Of a stretch of DNA of 64,000 nucleotides, positions 9,662 through 22,300 are shown in pieces. Position 1 is the first letter of the stretch. Each line of letters opens with the position of its first letter. A model generated the notes under the pieces. The model made no database searches, was not told where the DNA came from, and worked only from the letters and a program-made list of their open reading frames with translations. A program made the position numbers and the translations under genes. The DNA comes from Coniferiporia sulphurascens (taxonomy: Eukaryota > Basidiomycota > Agaricomycetes > Hymenochaetales > Hymenochaetaceae), in assembly GCA_002794785.1 (NCBI GenBank), contig NBBA01000007.1, positions 434,001-498,000 on the forward strand. The letters are read 5' to 3'.

Positions 9662-10139
9662 TGGAAGCCAACCAGGAGTTGGCAACACTAAAGTTCAGCC
9701 TAGGACAGAAAGGACAAAGGTGTCTTTGTTGCTGTCAGATAGACTACATACATTCCATGCTATAACTACTCACCTTTGTTGCTGTCAGATAGACTGAGGC
9801 AACAAAGGTGTGGAAAGCAGACAGGAATAGCAGGGGAATTATGTAAGTGTAGATCTGTACAGTCCGGAGGAATTCCGATCATGTGACCATCAGTCTGGTC
9901 AGGTGACCGATGGGCGGACACGTGCAATAGTCCGACGCATATAGGTGTCCGACGCACAGCGAGTGCGTCGGCTCCGCTGGTGCAAGGATTAGCTCCGTCT
10001 GTCTGCGTCCAGTCCGACAGTGTGCGTCGGACTGTGTCCTGTCCGACGGTGTGTGTCCGGCCTGGCGGTCTGCGTCGGATCCGCCAGTGTGCACATCAGA
10101 GTACCAGTAGTTGTTGGAGTAGTGAGCCCTGGGCTTACA
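9662..10139 (-). repeat. 3' LTR of the Ty3/gypsy element
   Basis: 478 bp, the same length as the copy at 18847-19324 and differing at six positions, all transitions. It contains a perfect 12-bp inverted repeat and a CpG-rich stretch with repeated TCCGAC/GTCGGA words (about 9930-10090). At most of the differences this copy has TG or CA where the other LTR has CG. Confidence 0.95.
9771..9810. repeat. Perfect 12-bp inverted repeat (hairpin) inside the LTR
   Basis: CACCTTTGTTGC at 9771-9782 pairs with GCAACAAAGGTG at 9799-9810 around a 16-nt loop. It is also present in the other LTR (18956-18995). A second copy of the TTTGTTGCTGTCAGATAGACT word lies about 50 bp upstream. It could be an RNA structure in the transcript or a protein-binding site; this is inference only. 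Confidence 0.7.
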
Positions 10140-10153
10140 CCCCTCCCCCCTCT
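10140..10153 (-). promoter_or_regulatory. Polypurine tract of the retroelement
   Basis: A 14-nt uninterrupted purine run on the minus strand (AGAGGGGGGAGGGG) directly upstream of the 3' LTR. This is the expected primer for plus-strand DNA synthesis, and it confirms the element's orientation. Confidence 0.85.
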
Positions 10154-10260
10154 AAAAATTTGTCCCCCCCTCCAGGGTGGAACACAATAGGAAACAAGGA
10201 AGAGGAAAATGGGAATGGGGAAGTGAGAAGAAAAGGTGGGAAAAGAGAAATAAAATAATA

Positions 10261-12170
10261 TTAAGCAGTCCGCCCTTGGTGCTGCTCCCAAGCCTCCAGG
10301 ACAAGCGGAGCAGATTCCTGGAGCTCTGTCCAGGACTTCCACTCTTGTCCCTGGTTCCCCCAACCTTTCCATCGGACTAGGAACTGAGTTCTGTGCCCCC
10401 GCTTGCGTTCATCCACAATAGCATCCACCTCAAACTCATTCCGGTCTTCATCCACTGGGCCCGGTCGAGCCAGCGCTCGTCTGGGGAAAAGGGCATCATC
10501 GTTGGGAATAAACCGTCGGAGTTGGCTGGCGTGGAACCCCAGGAAAGTCTGGTCCGAGTCCGGCAACTCCAGGGTATACTTGGACTTCTCAGGGAATGCA
10601 GTGGAGACTGTATACAGACTGTCATAGCGAGGCATGAACTTGGCAACCCACTGCTGACCCTTGGACTTGTACTCCTGCCTCCGGTTCCGAGTGGAGACCA
10701 TGACTTGGTCCCCTACTTGAAAAATGTCATCCGGAGTGTGGTGTTGGTTGGCATGGTGTGCCTGTTGGGTCTTGGCCGCCAGGAGGGAGTCCTGTGCATC
10801 CATTACATCTCGGTGGAGTTGCTGGACGAGTTCCATAGCCTGAACGGTTTCCTCCCCATCCGGCGGAGTTCCGCTGGAAGGTACAAGTGGCGGAATGAGT
10901 CGGGGAGAGTGTCCGGACTTCAGGTAGAAGGGCGTGTATCCGGTGGACGCATTCTTGGTGTTCATGATGACAAAGCGGACCTTTGGGAGAGCCTTGACCC
11001 AGTTCCGCTGGTTCCAGTCTACATGGAATCAGAGTATCTGGTTCACCATCTTGTTGGTCCCCTCGCTAGCTCTGTCGGTCTCCGGATGGAATGCGGTGGA
11101 CATCTTCAGCTTAACCCCGGTGAGTGCATGGAGAGCCTTCCAGAAATGGGAAACAAATAGCTTGTCCCTGTCTGAGATGATTTCCAGCAGTAGTCCGTTT
11201 TCACAGTACCACTCATTGAAGAAAACCGTAGCAAAGGCTTCTGCTGACATGTCCATGCATATGGGAACAATGCAGATGTCCGCCGAGCCCATCCGGTCCG
11301 TCATGGTCACAATCCCGTTGAATCCCCCATCCTCCGGAAGTGGTCCGATGAAGTCAATAGCCACACTATCAAAGCGCTTGTCCGGTACCGGCAAGGGGTG
11401 GAGCAGCCCTGCTGGCTTCATGGTTGCACTCTTGTGCCTCTGGCACTCCGGACAGCTGGGGACATAAGCTCCTTCAAGGTCCCATTGCATTCCCGGCCAA
11501 TAATACGCACCCCGGAGTGACTCATAGCTCTTCTCCGGTCCAAATGGCCCAGGGAATCATGGGCCAGTCGGTAGAGTGATTCCCGGATGTCCCCTTTCTG
11601 AGGGATGACAAGTCGGGTACCTACATACAGTAGGTCTGCTTTGGAGCAAGCCCCCTCTATGCTACTCAGGTTGTGGAGCAGCTTCTGGCACCATTCATCA
11701 TCTGCATAACCCTCCCAGATCTTCCTCAGTAGTTCCAGGTCACTAGCAATGGTCAGGACTGCCCCGACAGGCCCGGACTTGCATAGGTTGGGGAAATGGG
11801 CCAGTCCGATTGCCGCGATCTTCGTTGCGGAGCCATGTCCGTCGGGGTAACGTGACATGGCATCGGCCACTGTGTTATCCTCCCCTTTGACATAGTGGAG
11901 GGCATAGTCATACTGGGAGAGGAACTCCGACCATCAGGCTTGTCTCCGAGAGAGGTTGCGCTGCCCCTGGAAGTACTGCAAGGTCCGGTGGTCAGTGTGG
12001 ACCTCGAAGTGTACCCCCAGAAGGTAAACCTGCCACTTCTTGAGTGCCCAGACAATCGCAAGGAGTTCCTTCTCATGCATGGGGTAATTCTGCTCTGCAT
12101 TGTTGAGTTGGCGGGATTCAAAAGCCACTGGCTGGGCAGATTCCCAAGTCCATCTGATGCTCAGCACAGC
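10261..12170 (-). pseudogene. Retroelement RNase H (rest), integrase and chromodomain
   Basis: Downstream part of pol. RNase H continues with PVAFESRQLNNAEQNYPMHE and TDHRTLQYF. Integrase follows with a CPECQRHK zinc-finger half, VAIDFIGP (first catalytic Asp), ISDRDKLF (second Asp) and an E in ASEGTN (DD35E-type core). The C-terminus (about 10261-10450) is a chromodomain with FLVRWKGWG and a following aromatic-acidic motif, so the element is a chromovirus-like chromointegrase that can target chromatin. Breaks: TGA at 11934 where this family has Arg before Trp (QA-R-W), TGA at 11029, and a one-base deletion near 11541 that shifts the frame just before the zinc finger. The terminal stop is TAA at 10261. 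Confidence 0.9.
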
Positions 12171-12280
12171 CCCAGTGTTAGGAATTGATGAATAAGCTTG
12201 CTTACAAGCTTAGACAACGATACCAGTGACTACCAATACAGGAAGGGACTCCCACGGAGACTATCCAGTGATCATTCAAC

Positions 12281-12946
12281 ATGGGGACGGAACTAACTAG
12301 AAAACCAGGACTTCTTGGGAACATCAGGCCAATCACAATGCTCAAGCGACTGCTAAAGACTCTTGACCCATCAATACTCTGCCACCGATGCCGGACCGCA
12401 TACAATCAATCATGGGAAGCATTTAACATGGTAATAACCGAATGCTTTTACATGGCAGGGTACATGAACTGCCAGGTAACTACAGATCATGCTGTAGACC
12501 CTATAGGCGATGGCACAGAGGTCAGGGTAATGCACACGATACAAATGTACATCTTCAATGTACAGGAGTTTTTGCACAACATCCATGTCCAGATGATAGT
12601 GAACCTGCACATACATGACAAGGAATGTGACCTACGAGTGGTCTCAGGATCCTTCCCATACAGGACGTTGCAGGATAACACATTCCTAGCTAACGCTCAC
12701 TGATTATGCGCAAAGGTAATCACCCTCTTCGAGAATCTATCAGCAAAGGGATTGACAACCACTGATCAACAGATCGGCAATGTTAATCTTTACATGATAA
12801 CACTATGGTTATCAAATGGATCACCCCCGGTGCCACCTCCAGGATACATGCGACGTATTGCTAGGATAAACCACATTAACGAACTGCCGGACAATGTGAT
12901 CAATGACAGGACATCAACCGAAAGGTACCCACCTATGGACCTTTAG
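12281..12946 (+). pseudogene. LTR-borne ORF, copy A (unknown family)
   Basis: One frame of 221 residues broken only by a TGA at 12701-12703; the frame continues unchanged after it. It aligns along its length with the ORF in insertion B. Shared features: LC-x2-C near residues 34-37, then a W-x-AFN motif, GY-x-NCQ-(I/V)-T-x-DH, a TT-x-D motif in the second half, PGY-x-R-x3-IN, and a terminal R-T-x2-ER-x-P. No signal peptide or membrane segment is evident. It matches no gag, pol or env domain I know. Function is unknown; it lies upstream of the LTR's TATA box. Confidence 0.6.
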
Positions 12947-13239
12947 CCGATATCGCATTACGCAATTAAGCCACACTCGGCAGGAACCAAAGCGCTTACT
13001 GAAGCCAGCCACAAACTCTAAATGGCGAAGTGTCCAATACGACAAGACAACATGAAGGAACCAGCACAGGAGGCCAACAAGACAAGTTAATGACTTACCA
13101 ATCATCAAGCTGTTAGGCAGCATCTTAACAAGAAGCCACTGGCACATAAGACTACAGGGTAGCATGCAGAACAGTGGGGTGACACGCACAGCCTAAGTGT
13201 CATGTTGAAGTCATTATGATACCATATGACGTCCCTATG

Positions 13240-13460
13240 AGCTCAGTGGAGCCTAGTGGAGCCTAGTGGAGTGCATGATGCGCAATGGAGCTCAGTGGAG
13301 CACCAACGGCCAATCATAGATAGTTATTTCTCATATGATCCTCTAATGAGGTCATTTGCACTGGTATGCAGCTCCAAGTCAGTGGAGCTTATGACGACAC
13401 TGTGAGGCGTCATAGCTCCAACTGCAGAGCCTTGTGGAGCATCTGCTTTCAAGTGGAGCT
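13240..13460 (+). repeat. Cluster of TGGAGC-type words in the U3 of insertion A
   Basis: About eight copies of (A/T)GTGGAGC or close variants, several in a near 10-bp ladder at 13240-13270, plus inverted GCTCCA copies. All lie within 230 bp upstream of the TATA box. The arrangement looks like a repeated enhancer site; the binding factor is unknown. Confidence 0.5.
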
Positions 13461-13471
13461 TCTTCTTCATG

Positions 13472-13479
13472 TATATAAG
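13472..13479 (+). promoter_or_regulatory. TATA box of insertion A LTR
   Basis: TATATAAG about 175 bp before the right terminus, where a U3/R promoter is expected in an LTR read on the plus strand. Confidence 0.6.
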
Positions 13480-13656
13480 GAGGGCCTAGACCAGCCTAGA
13501 CCCCCAGTTTAATTCACCTTCTCAATTCTCTCAGACTTCTCCTGAGCAAAGTACCAACATCTACCAACTTATTCTTGACTCAATCACATGCCTCAACTCT
13601 ATCTCAACTACTTGTTCCATCGGCTAACCATGGTTACCCTTGGTCCTAACACCCAG

Positions 13657-14323
13657 TCCGGAAGTCACTAGCATCAGTCATCACATAGATAGTCTCATCA
13701 GACTCATGGTCCACTGTAGTCAGACAGTCTCAGCCTGTCACAAGCTCCTTAATCTTGTTGAATGCATGCTGATGCTCCAGAGTCCAGGTGGGGAAGTTGT
13801 GGTCATATTCCTTGCATGTGAGCAGAGTAAGGACTGCAGTATACTCTGCCAGCTGGGGGAGAAAAGCCGCGATATACCGGACCATTCCCAGGAAGGCCCG
13901 GACATCTTGGGTACGTGTCAGAGTAGGCCATTCTGTGACCCAAAGGGCTTTACTGGGGTCCGCTTCAATTCCCTGCTCTGAAATGACATGTCCCAGAAAC
14001 ATCACTTCGGAGCAGAAGAGGTTGGTCTTCTTTGGTGAGCAGTAAAGGTTGGCTGCCTGCATGGCATCCAAAACCATCGAAACGCGGACCTGATGCGCCT
14101 CGATGGTGTCGGACCAGATGATTATGTCATCCAGGTATACATGGCAAACCTTTCCGATGAGGTGTTCCAAGGCACAGAACATGCGCCACTGGTGTGTGGC
14201 CGGTGCATTGCATGTCCCCATTGGCATCACGAGCCACTCGTAGAGTCTGAAGGGGGTCGTCATGGCGGTAAACTGGACATCGTCCAGATGCATGCGGGTC
14301 TGGAAGAATGAGTTGGTCATGTC
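13657..14323 (-). pseudogene. Retroelement reverse transcriptase, C-terminal part, and start of RNase H
   Basis: Reads DMTNSFFQTRMH (first catalytic Asp region), then VYLDDIIIWS (YLDD active site), PKKTNLFCSEV and FLGHVISEQGIE, the palm and thumb of a Ty3-type RT. After a TGA at 13730, where related elements have Arg in a G-R-DCLTT motif, the frame continues into YVMTDASDFRTG, the RNase H catalytic Asp. Insertion A interrupts right after this. The upstream side is cut by insertion B. Confidence 0.9.
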
Positions 14324-14505
14324 AATCTTGTTAGATTCGCTCCCTGAATAAGGGATTGAAGCAAGTGATAACAGATTCACACAAATAGTACTAGTTAGTT
14401 TAGGGTAGGCTTGTTACCCTTTACTCGCTAGAGTGTTAGAGCTGATGATGGTGGTAAGAGACAAGAGATGAATTAAACTGCTTTTTACCGCAATTTTACA
14501 TTGGG

Positions 14506-14513
14506 CTTTTATA
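14506..14513 (-). promoter_or_regulatory. TATA box of insertion B LTR
   Basis: TATAAAAG on the minus strand, about 180 bp before the 3' terminus of the unit, matching the TATA position in insertion A. Confidence 0.6.
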
Positions 14514-14972
14514 CCCTACATGTTGTATGCTATTTACTATGTTCTGGTAGATACTACAACATACTACTCTCGCTTTATAAGTCATAGGAACATTCTGGTA
14601 CAGTCCTGTACATGCTATTTACTTATTCTTAGCTTCCTATGAGTTAGTCATATATTCTGGTATGTTCTACAGCCTACCGTGCTATCTTTATCTTACGCTA
14701 GAACCTCCCCTGAGTTTCCATCAAGTCATACAGTATAATACCTAAGTTAACCATTCTTGGATACTACTATACCTATGATGCTTCTCATTATTTCCTAATC
14801 GGTTCTGCTGTGTGATGCACTATACTTGGCTCTCATCAATCATGTCTTTAATTGATCGCCCTGCTTCCATCGGTTATTGTTAACTGAACGCTTAGATATA
14901 CCTGTGTGGCTTAGCACTTATGCTGACCTTCCTAATCTTATCTTGTTGTGGCTTGTTACTTATTACTGTAGA

Positions 14973-15623
14973 CTACAATTGAGTCATACCTTCCATAATA
15001 TCATTAAAAGGGGTTCGTTCTGGTGTCCTATTGTCTACTGGCATAAAGAGTGCCTTGGGTCCTATAGTGTTTATATTCATTATCCTACTATACCCTGGTG
15101 TGACTCTGTATGACAGTTCATCATTGAACCACCATATTATAATCTCCTTATCTATTGGTACTAACTCCTGTCTTAGATTTGGTTCCTTTCAATCTACTGT
15201 TGTGTGTCCTTTGGCTATGAAGTTGGCCTTGTATGTGAATAGTTGTTCTCGTAATTGTTTATTGATAGTATGAACTATTTGGTGTGCCGCTTCTGCATAA
15301 TCAGTTGATGTAATAACTGCCCTTTGATAACATAATTCATTATGTGGCTGATTATAAATCTTGGTTCTTGTGTAAGCACTGATTACATATTTATTCAATT
15401 GATATGAGAACATAGTTGCTCTATGTTCAATTATTACTTCTAGCCTTTCCGCCACTTGTTGTTCCCTTGTAGTATGATCGAATGTAATTTGACAGTTGTC
15501 ATATCCTGCATTCTGTCCTACTGTTGCACATGCAATGTTAAATGCTTTCCATGCTACTTGATCTGCATCTTTACAGCATTGGCACAGATTCCTTGTATCA
15601 ATTAAAGTTATGGGTCTTGCCAT
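14973..15623 (-). pseudogene. LTR-borne ORF, copy B (unknown family)
   Basis: Starts at ATG 15623 (MARPITLIDTRNLCQCC...) and would be 216 codons, broken by one TGA at 15189-15191 with the same frame open after it to a TAG ending at 14973. Homologous to copy A: LC-x-CC against LC-x2-C, WKAFN against WEAFN, GYDNCQITFDH against GYMNCQVTTDH. After the stop, PGYSRIMNIN and DNRTPERTP match the corresponding motifs in A. The stop codons of the two copies are at different places, so each was broken independently. The protein is polar, with no recognised domain. Confidence 0.6.
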
Positions 15624-15684
15624 GTCAATCTTGCTAATCTGTTGATCCAGCAATCATGATTTTCATCAATTTACTAACAAATCT

Positions 15685-16252
15685 TGCCGAAGATTTTTGC
15701 CTGTCCACAGTCACTTAGGATCTTGTCGATCCAGGGCAGGGGAGTCCAGTCTTGGACTGTATTGGCATTAAGCGCTCGGAAATCCCCTACCAAGCATGGC
15801 AGTGCTGTCAGGTCCGCCTTCGGAATGAGAAAGGCAGGCGATGCATACGGGCTGCTTGACTGTCGGATTCGTCCGGTGTCCTCATGCTGTTTCAGGAGGA
15901 TTTGCCAAGCCTCTCGATATTTCTTCGGACATGCATACAAGCAGGCATTCATGGTCAGGGTAGCATCCTTGAGCTTAATGTGGTGGAACACATTGCTGGG
16001 GAGTTCCTGGAGGTGTGGGATGTCTGTTGGAAATCGGTCCTTGTACCTTTCCTTCATTCGAGCATCCTCCTGTGCCAGCAACTCCTGGTAAGCCAGCACC
16101 TGGATCCACTGCCGGATCTTCAGCATGGTGGTGGCTGGCTTGGTGATTGGTTGGGTATGCACTGAAGCAGACTTAGGAGTCGGGATGTTGAAGGAAGGCT
16201 TGGCTCCATGTAGGGGAGCAAAGTCCGGCAGCTTTGAGGACTTCCTGTTCCG
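15685..16252 (-). pseudogene. Retroelement reverse transcriptase, N-terminal part
   Basis: Begins after a TAG at 16253 and contains RFPTDIPHLQELPSNVFHHI, then YACPKKYREAWQ, SSSPYASPAFLIPKADLTALP and DFRALNANTVQD, the fingers domain of a Ty3-type RT. It ends at FGKI, where insertion B begins. The frame is intact across this part. Confidence 0.9.
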
Positions 16253-16890
16253 CTAAGAAGGTGTCCGCTCCACCAGAGTATCGGCCACTCCGTTGGACTG
16301 GGGAAGGGAACTCAGCAAATCGTATCTGCAAGTCTTATCTACCAGTGTGCGGGCTGCTGCATCCAGGACAAGGTTGTTGCGGGAAAGGAATGGGATTCCA
16401 AGGATTAACTGGGTACACAATCTAGGCACCACCTTTGCACATACAGTCTTAGACACCCATTTCCGGTCCGCCGACCACACTTTTAGCTTCACCCAGTCCG
16501 TAAACACAATCTCTGCCCCTTCCACTTCAATTGCCAACATAGCAGTCTCCGGCTGTCGGAGCTTTCTCCGTCAGAGTCTGAGCTGCTCTACGAGGTCCAG
16601 CCTAATCAGAACTGTTACACAGCCATGATCAATCAGGGGTTGGACCAGAGCGGAGCGGGAAGTAGTGGAGTGGGAAACAATGCAGTGGGAAAGGAAATGG
16701 GGCTTGGAAAAGTGCACGTACTCAGAGTTTGAGGCGGTGGAGTCTTCATCCACTTCTTCTAGTCCGGAGTGTCCGGTGGTGAGGGCTGCAATGGGCTCTG
16801 TCTTCGGACACTTGTCCCCAGTGGTCCTGCTGCCACCTGGGGATGTTGTGGAACCTGCCCGAGCCGCTGCAGCGAGGGCCAGTGTGAGTG
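16253..16890 (-). pseudogene. Retroelement gag C-terminus and aspartic protease region
   Basis: The gag/protease linker runs from insertion C through a Ser/Thr/Pro-rich stretch to SALVQPLIDHGCVTVLIRLDL, the protease flap and active-site region. The usual D-(S/T)-G is D-H-G here. Downstream are VVPRLCTQLILGIPFLSRNN and LVLDAA, typical of the second half of retropepsins. A TGA at 16571 (Arg codon likely) and a TAG at 16253 break the frame. The DHG variant could be a lineage feature or damage. Confidence 0.7.
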
Positions 16891-16895
16891 GAGTG

Positions 16896-17414
16896 TGTTA
16901 CGTTTTTCCATACTTTTCCCTTATTGCACTGACTCACTTCCTATTCGTCATCACCAGTCAGAGCAGCTCCCCCATTTCTCTCTATTACTCATCCTTACTC
17001 ATATCACACCATAAGACGCCCCGATGATGCCTTATCGCACCATCATGACGTGCTTTGCTTACTGATCACATTCCTTGTGTTTCCATGACCTTCCATGCCA
17101 TGTAAACGACCGCATACAAGCAGCTACAGTAGTAAACACATAGAGTAGCATATAAGCCTGTAAAGTCGTAGCACAAGCCCTAAGCTTGTGCTCTTTGTTC
17201 ATACAAGCCCATTATCTGCTCCTCACCAAGTCTACTGTGTGCCTACTGAGCCACTAGCCGCTTCGTTGTAACCCGACTCTTCTAAGAAGCCCACCATGTC
17301 CACATCACCGATCACCTTTGACTTATGACATCTAGGAAGCCCTGTTGCTGTACTACCAGCCCCGACGATCAGGAAGCCCCAATGTCGATCACCGTGTACC
17401 CGTTGAGCTTAACA
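16896..17414 (+). mobile_element. Nested insertion C: 519-bp solo LTR
   Basis: TGTTAC...TTAACA ends with GAGTG duplicated at 16891-16895 and 17415-17419. Removing the unit and one duplication joins gag in frame (KDYT then PLTLA). A TATAAG box at 17151-17156 suggests plus-strand orientation. It is shorter than A and B and carries no reading frame of note, so it belongs to a different LTR family. Confidence 0.85.
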
Positions 17415-17419
17415 GAGTG

Positions 17420-18631
17420 TAGTCCTTGGCATACACAGGGCCATTTGGGCATGCAGACCCTATGTGTCTGGCATAAAAACGCCGGCATTGGAAACAGCCC
17501 TGGTGTTCCTGGAGCAGTGTCCGCTCTGCTTCGGTCAATTTGGGCACGTATGGACCAGGCTGCCCTGTGGAGTTCCCTGTCTTCTTCACCTGCTTGCGTC
17601 CGGACAGGGAACCTTCAGGGCAGAGTGTCCGGCCTTCAGCTGCTCTCCTGTGGGCACGGTCTGCCTGGACTGCCTCCTCCGAGGCCTTACGAATGCGAAA
17701 CTCATTGTAAGTCCGGCGCTCATCCAGGTTCTTGACGTGGAATGTCCACTCACAGACCCGGGTGTGGTCAATGACCAGCTCAGGCTTGATGGAGGCGGTC
17801 AGAGGGGTATTTCTGGTGGCCTTGGCAGCTGCTACAGCCACATCATGCAGCCGAGTCTGCTCAGAGTGCATGGGCATGAGGACCGGCGGGTGGAAGCGGA
17901 GTTGGTGCTGGAGGTCTGGGTGCATGTTGGCCTCCAGGAACTCAAGGAGTCAGGCTGAGGAGAGCTGGGATGCATCGGGCAGTATTGCATTCTGGGTGGC
18001 AACCTCCAGCTGCCAGTCCCAGAAGATGGAGGTCCCCTGCCAAGAGGACAGGAGCTTCTGGCACTCTGTTGCTTCCCAATCCACCAGAAGGGCTTCAGCA
18101 TAGAGCTCATTCATGAACTTCAGCAGGGACAGGGAATTGAGTTGGTGATAGTCATTGACATACCATTCCCGGAATTGGGGATCCATCAACCCTCCGGCCA
18201 CCATTGCGATGATCTTATCACCCACCACTAATTCTACCATCTGGTATGAGAGGGCTGCTCCCTGCCATTGGCAAAGGGTCTGGACACTCGGATCACCCGG
18301 AGTGAGTATGGGGCACTTGGTGGGACCTGCCCATTCGACCACTGGAGTCTGTCTGGAGGTCCAGACAAGTGAGGTCATGGCTATTGAGATGGGCTTGTTC
18401 TCCAATGCTGTAGGGTGGTCTGAGGCAGATGATTGAGTAGATGGGCTGGAAAGTCCGGACTCAGAGTCGGAGAGCAGTGGGAGTGTTGGGGAGCTAAAGA
18501 TAGACTCCAGAGGTACTGGTTGGGTGCGGGAAGCGGTGGACTCATGCCACTGGTACAGGCTGTCATGGGCTTGGGTTCGTGGGTGTGGTCTGGGAATTTT
18601 GTAACTGGGATTTTGACCAGGGTTCTGACCT
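17420..18631 (-). pseudogene. Retroelement gag
   Basis: A Ser/Pro-rich N-terminus is followed by a capsid-like helical region (DPQFREWYVNDYHQLNSLSL, then LVDWEATECQ) and a C-terminal zinc knuckle at about 17440-17490. The knuckle reads C-x2-C-x6-H-x4-C, while the common form is C-x2-C-x4-H-x4-C. A TGA at 17950 breaks the frame, which then continues unchanged. The start codon is not clear; the frame is closed by a TGA just upstream of about 18631. Gag would package the RNA and form virus-like particles. Confidence 0.75.
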
Positions 18632-18846
18632 GATCAAAGGTGGCTGGGCTGGGCTAGGATCATTGGGATTGCTTTGAATTGCGAAGCCCGAGAAGCTGGG
18701 AAGCCGTACAAGTCCTGCGGGTCCAGGGATCGTTCGATCGGCAGGATCAGAGGGCGGGGACCGTCAGAGTAGTGTGTAGAGCTTCAGACTTGGTTCCCTG
18801 GCACATACAACAGTGTAGAAATGCTCCGTTGATTTCAAAAAAAAAG

Positions 18847-19324
18847 TGGAAGCCAACCAGGAGTTGGCAACACTAAAGTTCAGCCTAGGACAGAAAGGAC
18901 AAAGGTGTCTTTGTTGCTGTCAGATAGACTACATACATTCCATGCTATAACTACTCACCTTTGTTGCTGTCAGATAGACTGAGGCAACAAAGGTGTGGAA
19001 AGCAGACAGGAATAGCAGGGGAATTATGTAAGTGTAGATCTGTACAGTCCGGAGGAATTCCGATCATGTGACCATCGGTCCGGTCAGGTGACCGATGGGC
19101 GGACACGTGCAATAGTCCGACGCATATAGGTGTCCGACGCACAGCGAGTGCGTCGGCTCCGCTGGTGCAAGGATTAGCTCCGTCTGTCTGCGTCCAGTCC
19201 GACAGTGTGCGTCGGGCTGTGTCCTGTCCGACGGTGTGTGTCCGGCCTGGCGGTCTGCGTCGGATCCGCCAGCGTGCACGTCGGAGTACCAGTAGTTGTT
19301 GGAGTAGTGAGCCCTGGGCTTACA
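18847..19324 (-). repeat. 5' LTR of the Ty3/gypsy element
   Basis: 478 bp with TG...CA ends, near-identical to 9662-10139. It is the promoter-bearing LTR for the minus-strand element. At most of the six differences it keeps CpG where the other LTR has TpG or CpA. No tRNA-type primer site starting with TGG lies directly inside it; the minus strand continues with a run of nine T. Confidence 0.95.
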
Positions 19325-19329
19325 AAATT
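19325..19329. repeat. 5-bp target-site duplication (right), AAATT
   Basis: Matches 9657-9661 exactly. Confidence 0.9.
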
Positions 19330-22300
19330 GTCAATAAAGAGTCACAGAAAATAGTACATATAATGCTGCATATAAGTGTTAAATTTTTGCTGTATATAAA
19401 TCCAGTGAGTGTGGGCCTCATCTCAGACAAACAATCATTGCAATTGATAAAGAAATGGTGGAGAAAGAAGAAAAACAAAAGTTACCACAACCTCCCAGTT
19501 ACTAATGTAGATCTATTTGCCTCTTATGGAAGTTTCCCTTTGGTCGTCACGATGCTACTCCTTCCTTTTTTAGCCTTTTCCTATAGCCGAAATAATTAAT
19601 TATACTGTAATGAGTTTGACTTATCGTGGGAAAGACCTGTGCCAAAGATTGGTGAAGGCCTAATTTTGCCAAATTTCTCCATTCTGCCATAGCTCAGTCA
19701 ATTCTGCTCAGATTCCTCTCAAATTTTGCATATAGATAGCTACATTCTCACTGAATATGAGTGTATTTTTTAGTTTCAGATGTTGTATTAAATAAATATA
19801 ATGAACGATATAAATAACAGATGGTCATATGAACACCCATCTTACTAAGTAAACAATAACGCAATGATAACGCCATATGAATAGGAGCCATGATAGTTAT
19901 AGTATACATAGCACATGGTAGATGTATATAAGGAGAGCTGGTCTCTACCATGAAATACATCGGTTTACACTGATAACCCACCTTCGCCTCTACCATACCA
20001 CTGCACCTCATTGTCTACCACAAAGTGCGTAGATTTTAAGATGTTGAGTAATGTACTGTGAGAAATAGCTTGACAAGCTCAGGTATCCCATTAGCCGGTG
20101 ATTGACTGTACTACGGAATTGCAGTTCTGAGGACTCCACGACATTTTCCCTATTTTTTATTTTTTCAGCCATACTCTGTATTTTTTATGGCATTCAGGTA
20201 TTGGAGGGATGGAGGAGTACATATTCCTAGCCTGTCATGACGCTGGGGAGTATATGTAATTTTGTGCTGGACAAAAGGTCTTATTTCGTTCATTACCCGT
20301 CACAGCACAGTATCGACCACATTCTCTGATGATAAGCAAGGTTCAACACTTATCCTTTTCCTTTGCTGATCTACCCGCTCCGCTCTTGCGGTTCGTGCGC
20401 TCTAACAGCTAGCCTTTTTACTGGTTAGATAACCAGTCTTCTTCCCCTGCATATGGTTGGTACTGATTAATGAACTTGATCTACACATCTAGCTGCCGTT
20501 TCGTTCGATCCTTTTCAACTCGGTCGGAAGCAAAGTGCATGTGTCACCCATCACTCGCACTACTTCCTGGATACTGTCGAAATCTGCCGCGATTTTGACC
20601 CTTAGTTCTTCTTTATCATGATGTATTGCAGCTCGCGAATAATTATCGTAAGCATATGTATAAAATCAAAATTTAGTATATGGCAAGCTACTAGGATGTT
20701 TAGAAACCCGGTTCTCGAATTACGGATTAGGTTGACGCAGATAGCATCTGAGGTGGCAACGATGATTCAATGAATCATGCAAGATATCGTCGATGCTATC
20801 ACGTCAATTGTGCAGGTTGCGAGTGTTCCGACTCCAGATGCCCACAGCGCACATGTGCGGTGCACCCAGTTGAATCCGCAACTGCATGTACGTTGCGAAG
20901 GACGACTATCTCTCTGATATCGGTCTTGGGAGGCTGATGGGGTAGTCGCAAAACGTGTTACGGCTCGAGAATGCTGTGGGGCTCGTTATAGACACTTGTG
21001 GGCAAGGCAACCTTTAATTAACAATTGGGATGAAATGGGGAGCTTTCTCAGTTTTAAAATAAACATGTACTCTGTCGGATTCAAGGGAAATAACGTCCAC
21101 TAACTTCAAGCCCCGCACTCAAGCAAAGACATGATCATCTTCCGTAATCTTGAATCACTATCCGAGTCAGTATTTCTGTGCCGAGCGCGTTGATTAGTCC
21201 TTGTGCCAGTTCACCGCGCTTATCCCCGCAACAGCATGACTCCGACTGAAAAGACCAAGGGCGCTTGAGCTAGAGAAATGACGGATACATACTGAGCCCC
21301 AAGGTTTAGTCGGACTCTGTTGTCGCCCTGCGTGCCGAGTATTATAGACTGGTCCTAATATGAGCGTTAGTCTTTTGACCCTCTTTTTCCCTCCCTGAGT
21401 TCAGATGCATAAGTGGCTTGAACGTGCACTATTACAGGGTGTCTTCTGCTGTAGTTCTCCTGAAATCACTCTTGATCATTCACACTGCATTCCATTTTTC
21501 ACAGCGGACCTGGAGATGTACACCCTAGAACTAGCACCGGCTCATTGCATGTGTGCCGGGCGCCTTGCCGTGGTACGCTCTCCGGAAGCCTTCTGTGCCT
21601 GTGGATGTACATGATCAGTTTATCAGGTCCTTGGATCGCGCTATTGGCACTGGGTATATGCGGTCCCGCGGATCTGATGTCGCCGACCTATTTCGATCAA
21701 GGCGCTTAAATCAAGCTCACACTTACCCCGCCTTTACCCCGTAATAGGTTTCGATCAATATCAGAGGCATTGATTGGTTGCGCCAATATCCACCGTTACT
21801 GAGTGCTGTGGTAAATGGGGGTCAGAGGATGAAGCTCACCGAGTCGGCGCGTCGCGCAATATTAATTATCTGGGTCTGGAACTCGCCTCGCAGCCGGCGT
21901 GATAATAGCTCTTAGTGACTCAGCAGAAGAACCGCCTTTTGGGTTCGGGTGCAGTCACCTTCCTTACGTTCAATAGGAGGATGCACATCGACTCAGCTTC
22001 CGTCCCGATTGCCCTTTTGACCTCATTGTTACGCAAGCTTCCATCTCTTTCTCCGGCACGCAGAAAGGAGTTCTTCCGCACAGGCTGTGCCGGGGGAGTC
22101 ATAGTGTAGTAGGGTAGTAGAGCACAGTCGACGATGAATCGAGATCATGGAACAAGGAGGACGCGCCAGATGAGGCGTGCAGACCGCATTTGAGGTTGAG
22201 TCACGTGTTTGACCGTGCTAGGCGCGCGTGGACCGTTCTGCAATGGTGCAACGCTGCTCACTGTCGACGACGACGACGGCGGCGAAGACGACTGCTCTAG

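What the first reader, a model, noticed from the sequence alone, without database searches (positions are those of the whole stretch)
12176..15679. A protein family encoded inside the LTRs of two nested retroelement insertions
Insertions A (12176-13651, plus) and B (14329-15679, minus) are each bounded by TG...CA inverted termini and a perfect 5-bp target duplication, and each has a TATA box near its 3' end. In both, a reading frame of about 216-221 codons sits near the 5' end, in the U3 position. The two proteins align along their length (LC-x2-C; W-x-AFN; GY-x-NCQ-x-T-x-DH; PGY-x-R-x3-IN; RT-x2-ER-x-P) although the DNA has diverged strongly. Each is broken by a single TGA at a different place. 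Shared protein motifs between such diverged DNA suggest past selection on the protein. LTRs that encode their own protein are rare (mouse mammary tumour virus superantigen is the classic case) and I know of no such family in fungal elements.
Basis: partly seen in the sequence, partly recalled or inferred. Interest (0 to 1): 0.85.

Follow-up and report, generated by a model that had tools for sequence, protein, structure and literature searches.

The report
LTR-type repeats that encode a protein
In one genome a retroelement end-repeat is scattered in many copies that carry a small gene of unknown function, which selection kept working while the repeats were spreading; repeats of this type are normally non-coding, and the best-known exception is a gene of a mouse retrovirus.

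Summary
A (12176-13651, +) and B (14329-15679, -) are TG...CA units with perfect 5-bp target duplications. Each has a TATA box about 33 bp before a shared CAGTTTAATTCA motif near its 3' end, and a 221- or 216-codon frame near its 5' end. The window's genome holds 92 exact A-type 3' ends and 195-204 B/C-type ends. The proteins are homologous (E 1e-15 to 1e-19). A third version, C, is about 60% identical to B.

The ORF was under purifying selection. No indel falls in the ORF of 24 A and 8 B units; the similar-length 3' part has 13 and 5 indel sites. Non-CpG polymorphism at codon positions 1+2 is half or less of that at position 3; a control region is flat. B-C dN/dS is about 0.23.

New here: B and C share nearly the same noncoding LTR (5-10% non-CpG difference) around ORFs that differ at 40% of third positions. 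The ORF looks like an exchangeable cassette.

Against the LTR reading, none of 30 flank-checked units adjoins an interior, and no LTR-interior-LTR element was found. I read them as solo LTRs of a lost element, comparable in layout with MMTV sag. A self-contained small element is the main rival. The function is unknown; a zinc-binding regulator is my guess.

The parts
12176..13651 (+). Unit A: LTR-like unit, TGTTAG...CTAACA, 1476 bp
   Evidence: 92 exact 3' ends in the genome
12171..12175 (.). Left target duplication of A (CCCAG)
13652..13656 (.). Right target duplication of A (CCCAG)
12281..12946 (+). ORF of A, 221 codons, broken by TGA at 12701-12703 (codon 141)
   Evidence: in 21 A copies 24 of 25 stops stand where the commonest codon is CGA
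13472..13479 (+). TATA box of A (TATATAAG)
   Evidence: read by eye
13505..13516 (+). CAGTTTAATTCA, about 33 bp after TATA; putative start region (R), also present in B and C
   Evidence: read by eye
14329..15679 (-). Unit B: LTR-like unit, 1351 bp
   Evidence: 195-204 B/C-type ends in the genome
14324..14328 (.). Target duplication of B (AATCT on +)
15680..15684 (.). Target duplication of B (AATCT on +)
14973..15623 (-). ORF of B, 216 codons, broken by TGA at 15189-15191 (codon 145)
14506..14513 (-). TATA box of B (TATAAAAG)
   Evidence: read by eye
14469..14480 (-). CAGTTTAATTCA of B, about 33 bp after TATA
   Evidence: read by eye
9662..19324 (-). Host Ty3/gypsy-like element into which A and B inserted; LTRs 9662-10139 and 18847-19324, TSD AAATT
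   Evidence: LTRs; pol-like frames (label by motifs I recognised)

Best explanation
A and B are solo LTRs of retrotransposon families whose U3 region encodes a 216-221-aa accessory protein. SHOWN: TG...CA ends and 5-bp duplications, close to 300 ends of these types in the genome, one homologous protein family (A, B, C), purifying selection on the frame, CpG decay of A copies, and a B/C LTR with two old ORF versions. INFERRED: in the parent element the 5' LTR promoter (TATA plus start motif near the 3' end of the LTR) made an RNA that ran, probably spliced, into the ORF at the start of the 3' LTR, as is described for MMTV sag; I saw no TATA by eye in the 56-105 bp before the ATG, but MMTV also uses a promoter inside U3, so that is not excluded. 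After insertion, recombination between the two 1.4-kb direct LTRs removed the interior and left lone LTRs. GUESSED: the protein (invariant C-x2-C, C44, H50, H67 and H-x3-C) is a zinc-binding regulator of the element, for instance copy-number control or superinfection exclusion, or a counter to host silencing. Such a role would fit the old, exchanged ORF versions.
For: Ends and TSDs: perfect 5-bp TSD at 15 of 22 A units and 5 of 8 B units; 6 more units carry TSDs exchanged between inverted partners, one pair with a 1-base change. No indel in the ORF of 24 A or 8 B units; in the de-duplicated set (21 A, 7 B) 13 and 5 distinct indel sites in the 708- and 643-bp 3' parts, 3 and 0 in the 105 and 56 bp before the ORF. 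Non-CpG polymorphic sites by codon position: A 13/193, 14/192, 26/180; B 10/201, 11/206, 30/199; control region after the ORF A 22/154, 22/152, 18/148 and B 18/135, 15/131, 13/135 (tests). NG86 dN/dS: A 0.30, B 0.16, C 0.17 within families, B-C 0.258/1.123. B-C non-CpG difference 0.396 at third positions against 0.075 in noncoding U3 and 0.050 in R-U5 (28 pairs). sag precedent: 490 of 527 sag contigs had no other retroviral gene and were read as solo LTRs (PMC4667437, passages). [quoted passage not shown] 2012 as cited in PMC7251063, passages).
Against: No complete element was found. None of 30 flank-checked A and B units shares a same-direction adjoining flank with another; 26 have their own or an exchanged TSD, and of the other 4 one is cut, one has a shifted 4-bp match and two are unexplained. 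0 of 17 same-strand neighbour pairs within 30 kb has near-equal scores. Only 20 B/C 3' ends are followed by TGG within 6 nt, about what chance gives. One apparent copia with a B-type 3' LTR was an insertion into its RNase H frame. A and B entered a gypsy whose own LTRs differ at only 6 of 478 sites, so they are not ancient, which makes the lack of complete copies awkward. Two of two C units read to both ends lack matching flanks. The units tested for indels were the best-matching copies; among the weaker rows several frames are split or partial. No expression data.
Confidence: 0.68

Rival explanations
1. The 1.35-1.48-kb unit is itself the mobile element: a compact single-ORF element, moved in trans by some retroviral-type integrase, never part of a longer LTR element; or an LTR pair with an almost empty interior (TRIM-like) that collapses at once.
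For: 20 of 30 checked units stand alone with their own TSD; no shared interior, no excess of PBS-like junctions, no matching direct pairs among listed rows; the units inserted recently enough to sit inside a little-diverged gypsy yet are already alone; the ORF is the only selected coding part seen in the unit.
Against: The promoter-like TATA plus start motif lies after the ORF and points out of the unit; a lone unit could not transcribe itself end to end from it. The 5-bp TSD with TG...CA ends is the retroviral or LTR signature (recalled knowledge). The one close tandem noticed, on C2 with a 493-bp gap, is a C unit beside a B unit.
Confidence: 0.24
2. The ORF is a fossil: a captured gene piece drifting neutrally, open by chance or because the copies are young.
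For: Most listed copies carry stops (49 of 62 A rows; 123 of 150 B rows; 21 of 22 C rows). Private A variants alone show only weak, non-significant constraint (ratio 0.62, p=0.13).
Against: Codon-position constraint with a flat control region, zero ORF indels in the units tested, and B-C positions 1/2/3 at 0.22/0.22/0.396; 24 of 25 stops in 21 A copies are CpG decay. Variants shared by two or more copies (mostly made before insertion) are the most constrained, positions 1+2 to 3 ratio 0.13 in A (p=0.006) and 0.22 in B (p=1.4e-4).
Confidence: 0.04
3. The B/C contrast is homogenisation of the noncoding LTR by gene conversion among copies, not exchange of the ORF.
For: Inverted neighbours in this genome are strongly homogenised, 99.3-99.8% against at most 96.3% for other pairs. 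The 5' edge is not razor-sharp: positions 21-40 of the unit already differ at 5 of 20 sites.
Against: Conversion would have to spare just the ORF; in the three B-C pairs viewed window by window the change lies near both ends of the ORF. The excess of third-position over noncoding difference is also seen between two C units (41/205 against 34/424, p=3e-5).
Confidence: 0.3

Closest known systems
Mouse mammary tumour virus sag (superantigen) and related betaretroviral LTR-encoded sags
   Same: Gene mostly in U3 of an LTR, upstream of the U3/R start; most genomic relatives survive as solo LTRs; protein conserved in otherwise fast-changing LTRs (PMC4667437, passages)
   Different: No relation of the proteins seen (no Pfam match below E 0.05, no PDB-sequence match; no direct comparison with Sag); no complete element found; the host looks non-vertebrate (not tested), so a superantigen role is implausible
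Genes that overlap U3 in complex retroviruses (nef, bet; recalled)
   Same: Accessory gene at the 3' end reaching into U3
   Different: Only partly in the LTR; no sequence relation tested
TRIM/SMART small LTR elements (a small grass LTR element seen in the listing, PMC3281118; rest recalled)
   Same: Many short LTR-type copies, non-autonomous
   Different: TRIMs are non-coding (recalled); here one selected ORF
Ty1 p22 copy-number control (recalled)
   Same: Model for an element-encoded trans-acting restrictor
   Different: p22 is a Gag fragment made from inside gag, not LTR-encoded

Membership tests
LTR of an LTR retrotransposon | TG...CA ends | tested here: met
LTR of an LTR retrotransposon | 4-6-bp target duplication | tested here: met
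   15 of 22 A and 5 of 8 B units perfect 5 bp; 6 further units exchanged between inverted partners; 4 of 30 not; 2 of 2 C units not matching
LTR of an LTR retrotransposon | Pairs in direct orientation around an interior with PBS, PPT, gag-pol | tested here: not met
   capped lists, so not exhaustive; absence is expected if all copies are solo LTRs
LTR of an LTR retrotransposon | Promoter near the 3' side (U3-R-U5 layout) | tested here: inconclusive
   TATA and shared CAGTTTAATTCA about 33 bp on in A and B, motif also in C (by eye); no promoter scan, no RNA data
MMTV-type LTR-encoded gene | ORF inside U3 and under selection | tested here: met
   holds if the unit is an LTR
MMTV-type LTR-encoded gene | Spliced mRNA from the 5' LTR into the 3' LTR ORF | not testable with these tools
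   needs RNA-seq and a complete element
MMTV superantigen protein family | Sequence homology to Sag | tested here: inconclusive
   Pfam: A none, B only four matches with E 0.054-0.21, none to Sag; no PDB sequence match; no direct comparison with Sag made
TRIM | Two LTRs around a very short interior | tested here: not met
   the one close tandem noticed, C2:1026938-1030132, is a C unit beside a B unit; only the first 100 places of each end were listed
TRIM | No coding capacity | tested here: not met

The most novel reading that the evidence does not exclude
A retrotransposon lineage encodes in its LTR a trans-acting protein with diverged self-types, such as a superinfection-exclusion or copy-control factor. 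Old ORF versions are kept apart by selection and moved as cassettes between otherwise near-identical LTRs, so that even solo LTRs go on carrying the gene and could act as a distributed immunity or regulation array in the host genome.
Probability: 0.15. Interest if true: 0.92.

Novelty: new variant of a known kind. Interest (0 to 1): 0.74.

Why it matters
LTRs are ordinarily non-coding, and the standard exception is one betaretroviral gene (PMC4667437, passages). A selected protein family inside LTR-type units of an apparently non-vertebrate genome would show that LTR-encoded genes arose more than once. Such a gene survives the usual fate of the element, collapse to a solo LTR. The ORF cassette in a shared LTR gives a direct way to test whether element-encoded factors diversify under self-recognition or an arms race. 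Masking LTRs as repeats would hide such genes from annotation.

Tried and rejected
Direct same-strand A pair on C7 (L037): 89.8% alike, with a NACHT/WD40-like host gene between them, so two solos (gene label recalled from its motifs). ORF downstream of A on C18 (L040): single copy, not an interior. Copia with an apparent B-type 3' LTR on C5: a solo inserted into the RNase H frame. C2 tandem as a TRIM: a C unit beside a B unit. Integrase (PF00665) and copia RT (PF07727) places against unit pairs: compared by eye, none gave a convincing LTR-interior-LTR (150 of 248 and 150 of 191 candidates were scored). C6 three-unit array with about 5-kb gaps: scores differ and no integrase or copia RT was listed between, but the sequence was not read. 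PBS-like junction: 20 ends followed by TGG within 6 nt (strings shown for 16, two of them twice), against about 21 by my estimate from 195 ends. Structure of the protein: AlphaFold mean pLDDT 47.7; no PDB fold match at 1e-3, best SecB 0.009 with TM 0.2, RAD52 among the weak ones; not used. IMG/VR: no relative. PLSDB plasmids: none. Rfam: none in 10000-19500. Protein database (5.8 billion): two C-like proteins only, P0001 and P0002; none for A. Literature: listings; passages of PMC7251063, PMC9674265 and PMC4667437; I saw no fungal LTR-encoded protein in them; most subscription papers are not held.

On re-check (one search added) I changed: the interior test is now stated as adjoining same-direction flanks, with 4 of 30 units lacking an own or exchanged TSD; the stop statement is limited to A; break points were viewed in three B-C pairs, not in all 28.

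Full report
WHAT IS THERE. Units A (12176-13651, +) and B (14329-15679, -) begin TGTTAG and end CTAACA, and stand between perfect 5-bp duplications. Both lie inside one Ty3/gypsy-like element (9662-19324) whose 478-bp LTRs differ at 6 sites, 5 of them CpG-type, with TSD AAATT. A and B are therefore younger than that insertion. Each unit has an ORF near its 5' end (221 and 216 codons). Near its 3' end it has a TATA box followed about 33 bp later by CAGTTTAATTCA, a motif also present in C (by eye).

COPIES. The window lies in a 39.35-Mb, 31-contig genome. It has 92 exact A-type 3' ends (control 0), and 195 B/C-type 3' ends and 204 5' ends (control 1 and 0). Protein searches scored 150 of 322 candidates for B, 150 of 315 for A and 150 of 317 for P0001. 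A third version, C (22 rows; five loci in hand), is 58-61% identical to B and 23-26% to A. In 5.8 billion database proteins two relatives were found, both C-like, on contigs under 1 kb; none for A. No Pfam family reached E 0.05 and there was no PDB sequence match.

SELECTION. Units tested: 22 A units from the 20 fetched best-scoring loci and the window, plus two from L037, and 8 best-scoring B units. Over these 24 A and 8 B units there is no indel in the ORF. The equally long 3' rest of the unit has 13 and 5 distinct indel sites after dropping four near-identical twins, leaving 21 A and 7 B. Weaker A rows include split and partial frames, which were not in this test. At columns without CpG the polymorphic fractions by codon position are A 13/193, 14/192, 26/180 and B 10/201, 11/206, 30/199. 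The region after the ORF is flat (A 22/154, 22/152, 18/148; B 18/135, 15/131, 13/135). Fisher tests, positions 1+2 against 3: A p=0.008, B p=7e-5. Variants shared by two or more copies show ratios of 0.13 (A, p=0.006) and 0.22 (B, p=1.4e-4). Private variants show 0.62 and 0.53 and are not significant (p=0.13 each). This is as expected if selection acted in the source lineage and inserted copies decay. NG86 dN/dS is 0.30, 0.16 and 0.17 within A, B and C (323, 27 and 10 pairs with dS above 0) and 0.23 between B and C (40 pairs). Stop codons were dropped pairwise there, which lowers dN a little; twins and CpG sites were included. Of 25 stops in 21 A copies, 24 stand where the commonest codon is CGA. 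In 7 B copies 3 of 8 do, and 4 of 8 are a TGA that is itself the commonest codon at that place. 13 of 62 near-full A rows, 27 of 150 B rows and 1 of 22 C rows have no stop.

ORF CASSETTE. Between B and C (28 pairs of 7 B and 4 C units, two of the C units partial) the non-CpG difference per site is 0.096 in the first 56 bp, 0.22/0.22/0.396 at codon positions 1/2/3, 0.075 in noncoding U3 and 0.050 in R-U5. Within B noncoding U3 is 0.052. One pair: 75/203 third positions against 22/416 noncoding, p=7e-23. In the three B-C pairs viewed by windows the change lies near the two ends of the ORF, though positions 21-40 already differ at 5 of 20 sites. One LTR family thus carries two old ORF versions. 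I read this as exchange, for instance by template switching during reverse transcription. Conversion of the noncoding part is the alternative.

LTR OR NOT. For: ends, TSD, promoter layout. Against: of 30 flank-checked A and B units (22 A, 8 B), 20 have a perfect TSD; 6 form three inverted pairs with exchanged TSDs, one pair with a 1-base change; 1 is cut 10 bp from its end by another element; 1 has a shifted 4-bp match; 2 (L035, L014) have none. None shares a same-direction adjoining flank with another, as an interior would give. Two C units read to both ends have no matching flanks. TGG follows within 6 nt at 20 B/C 3' ends, about the chance number by my estimate. A neighbour with copia pol on C5 proved to be an insertion into the RNase H frame. 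I keep solo LTR as the best reading because the promoter points outward after the ORF, longer LTRs are reported as more prone to unequal recombination (passages of PMC7251063), and LTR-encoded sag genes show the same fate, 490 of 527 contigs (passages of PMC4667437).

RECOMBINATION SIDE RESULT. Inverted neighbours are 99.3-99.8% alike in 4 of 4 pairs in hand, while other pairs reach at most 96.3%. In 3 of these 4 pairs the TSDs are swapped, one with a 1-base change, which marks an inversion between them. By score, 12 of 33 inverted pairs within 30 kb are near-equal, against 0 of 17 direct pairs; random pairs 4-5% (62 of the A rows and 136 of the 150 rows were entered). Frequent recombination between nearby copies would delete whatever lies between direct copies, which fits the absence of complete elements. 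This is inference.

MECHANISM. Shown: a selected protein family in LTR-type units. Inferred: expression from the 5' LTR into the 3' LTR, as for sag. Guess: a zinc-binding regulator, from invariant C14, C17, C44, H50, H67, H94 and C98 (numbering of L043; 10 sequences). The structure prediction was too poor to use.

LIMITS. The organism was not identified. No RNA data. Family labels such as gypsy and NACHT/WD40 rest on motifs I recognised, except rve and RVT_2.

Noticed in passing
L017/L018, L023 (two units), L024/L029, L010/L011: Inverted neighbouring units are 99.3-99.8% identical and in 3 of 4 pairs have exactly or nearly exactly exchanged target duplications: inversions and conversion between inverted repeats.
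   Followed up: partly
L044 (C5:634960-635420): A B-type unit sits inside the RNase H reading frame of a copia element.
   Followed up: yes
window 9662-19324: Gypsy-like element with 478-bp LTRs, TSD AAATT, 6 differences of which 5 are CpG-type; CpG observed/expected 0.51 against 0.99 for the window, A 0.46, B 0.33: methylation-type decay.
   Followed up: partly
G000 C1:248670-249236 and C23:154234-154800: Two frames of 211 aa, 65% identical to P0001, each with one TAA and not among the listed B hits: possibly a fourth ORF version.
   Followed up: no
L040 (C18:247056-249000): Single-copy ORFs directly after an A unit, the first running on from its last codons; unidentified.
   Followed up: partly
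G000 C6:665187-679600: Three same-strand B/C units spaced about 6.5 kb with about 5-kb gaps; scores differ; interior not read.
   Followed up: no
flanks of L013, L035 and L036: A and B units landed within about 145 bp of each other in copies of the same other repeat, which hints at a preferred target element.
   Followed up: no
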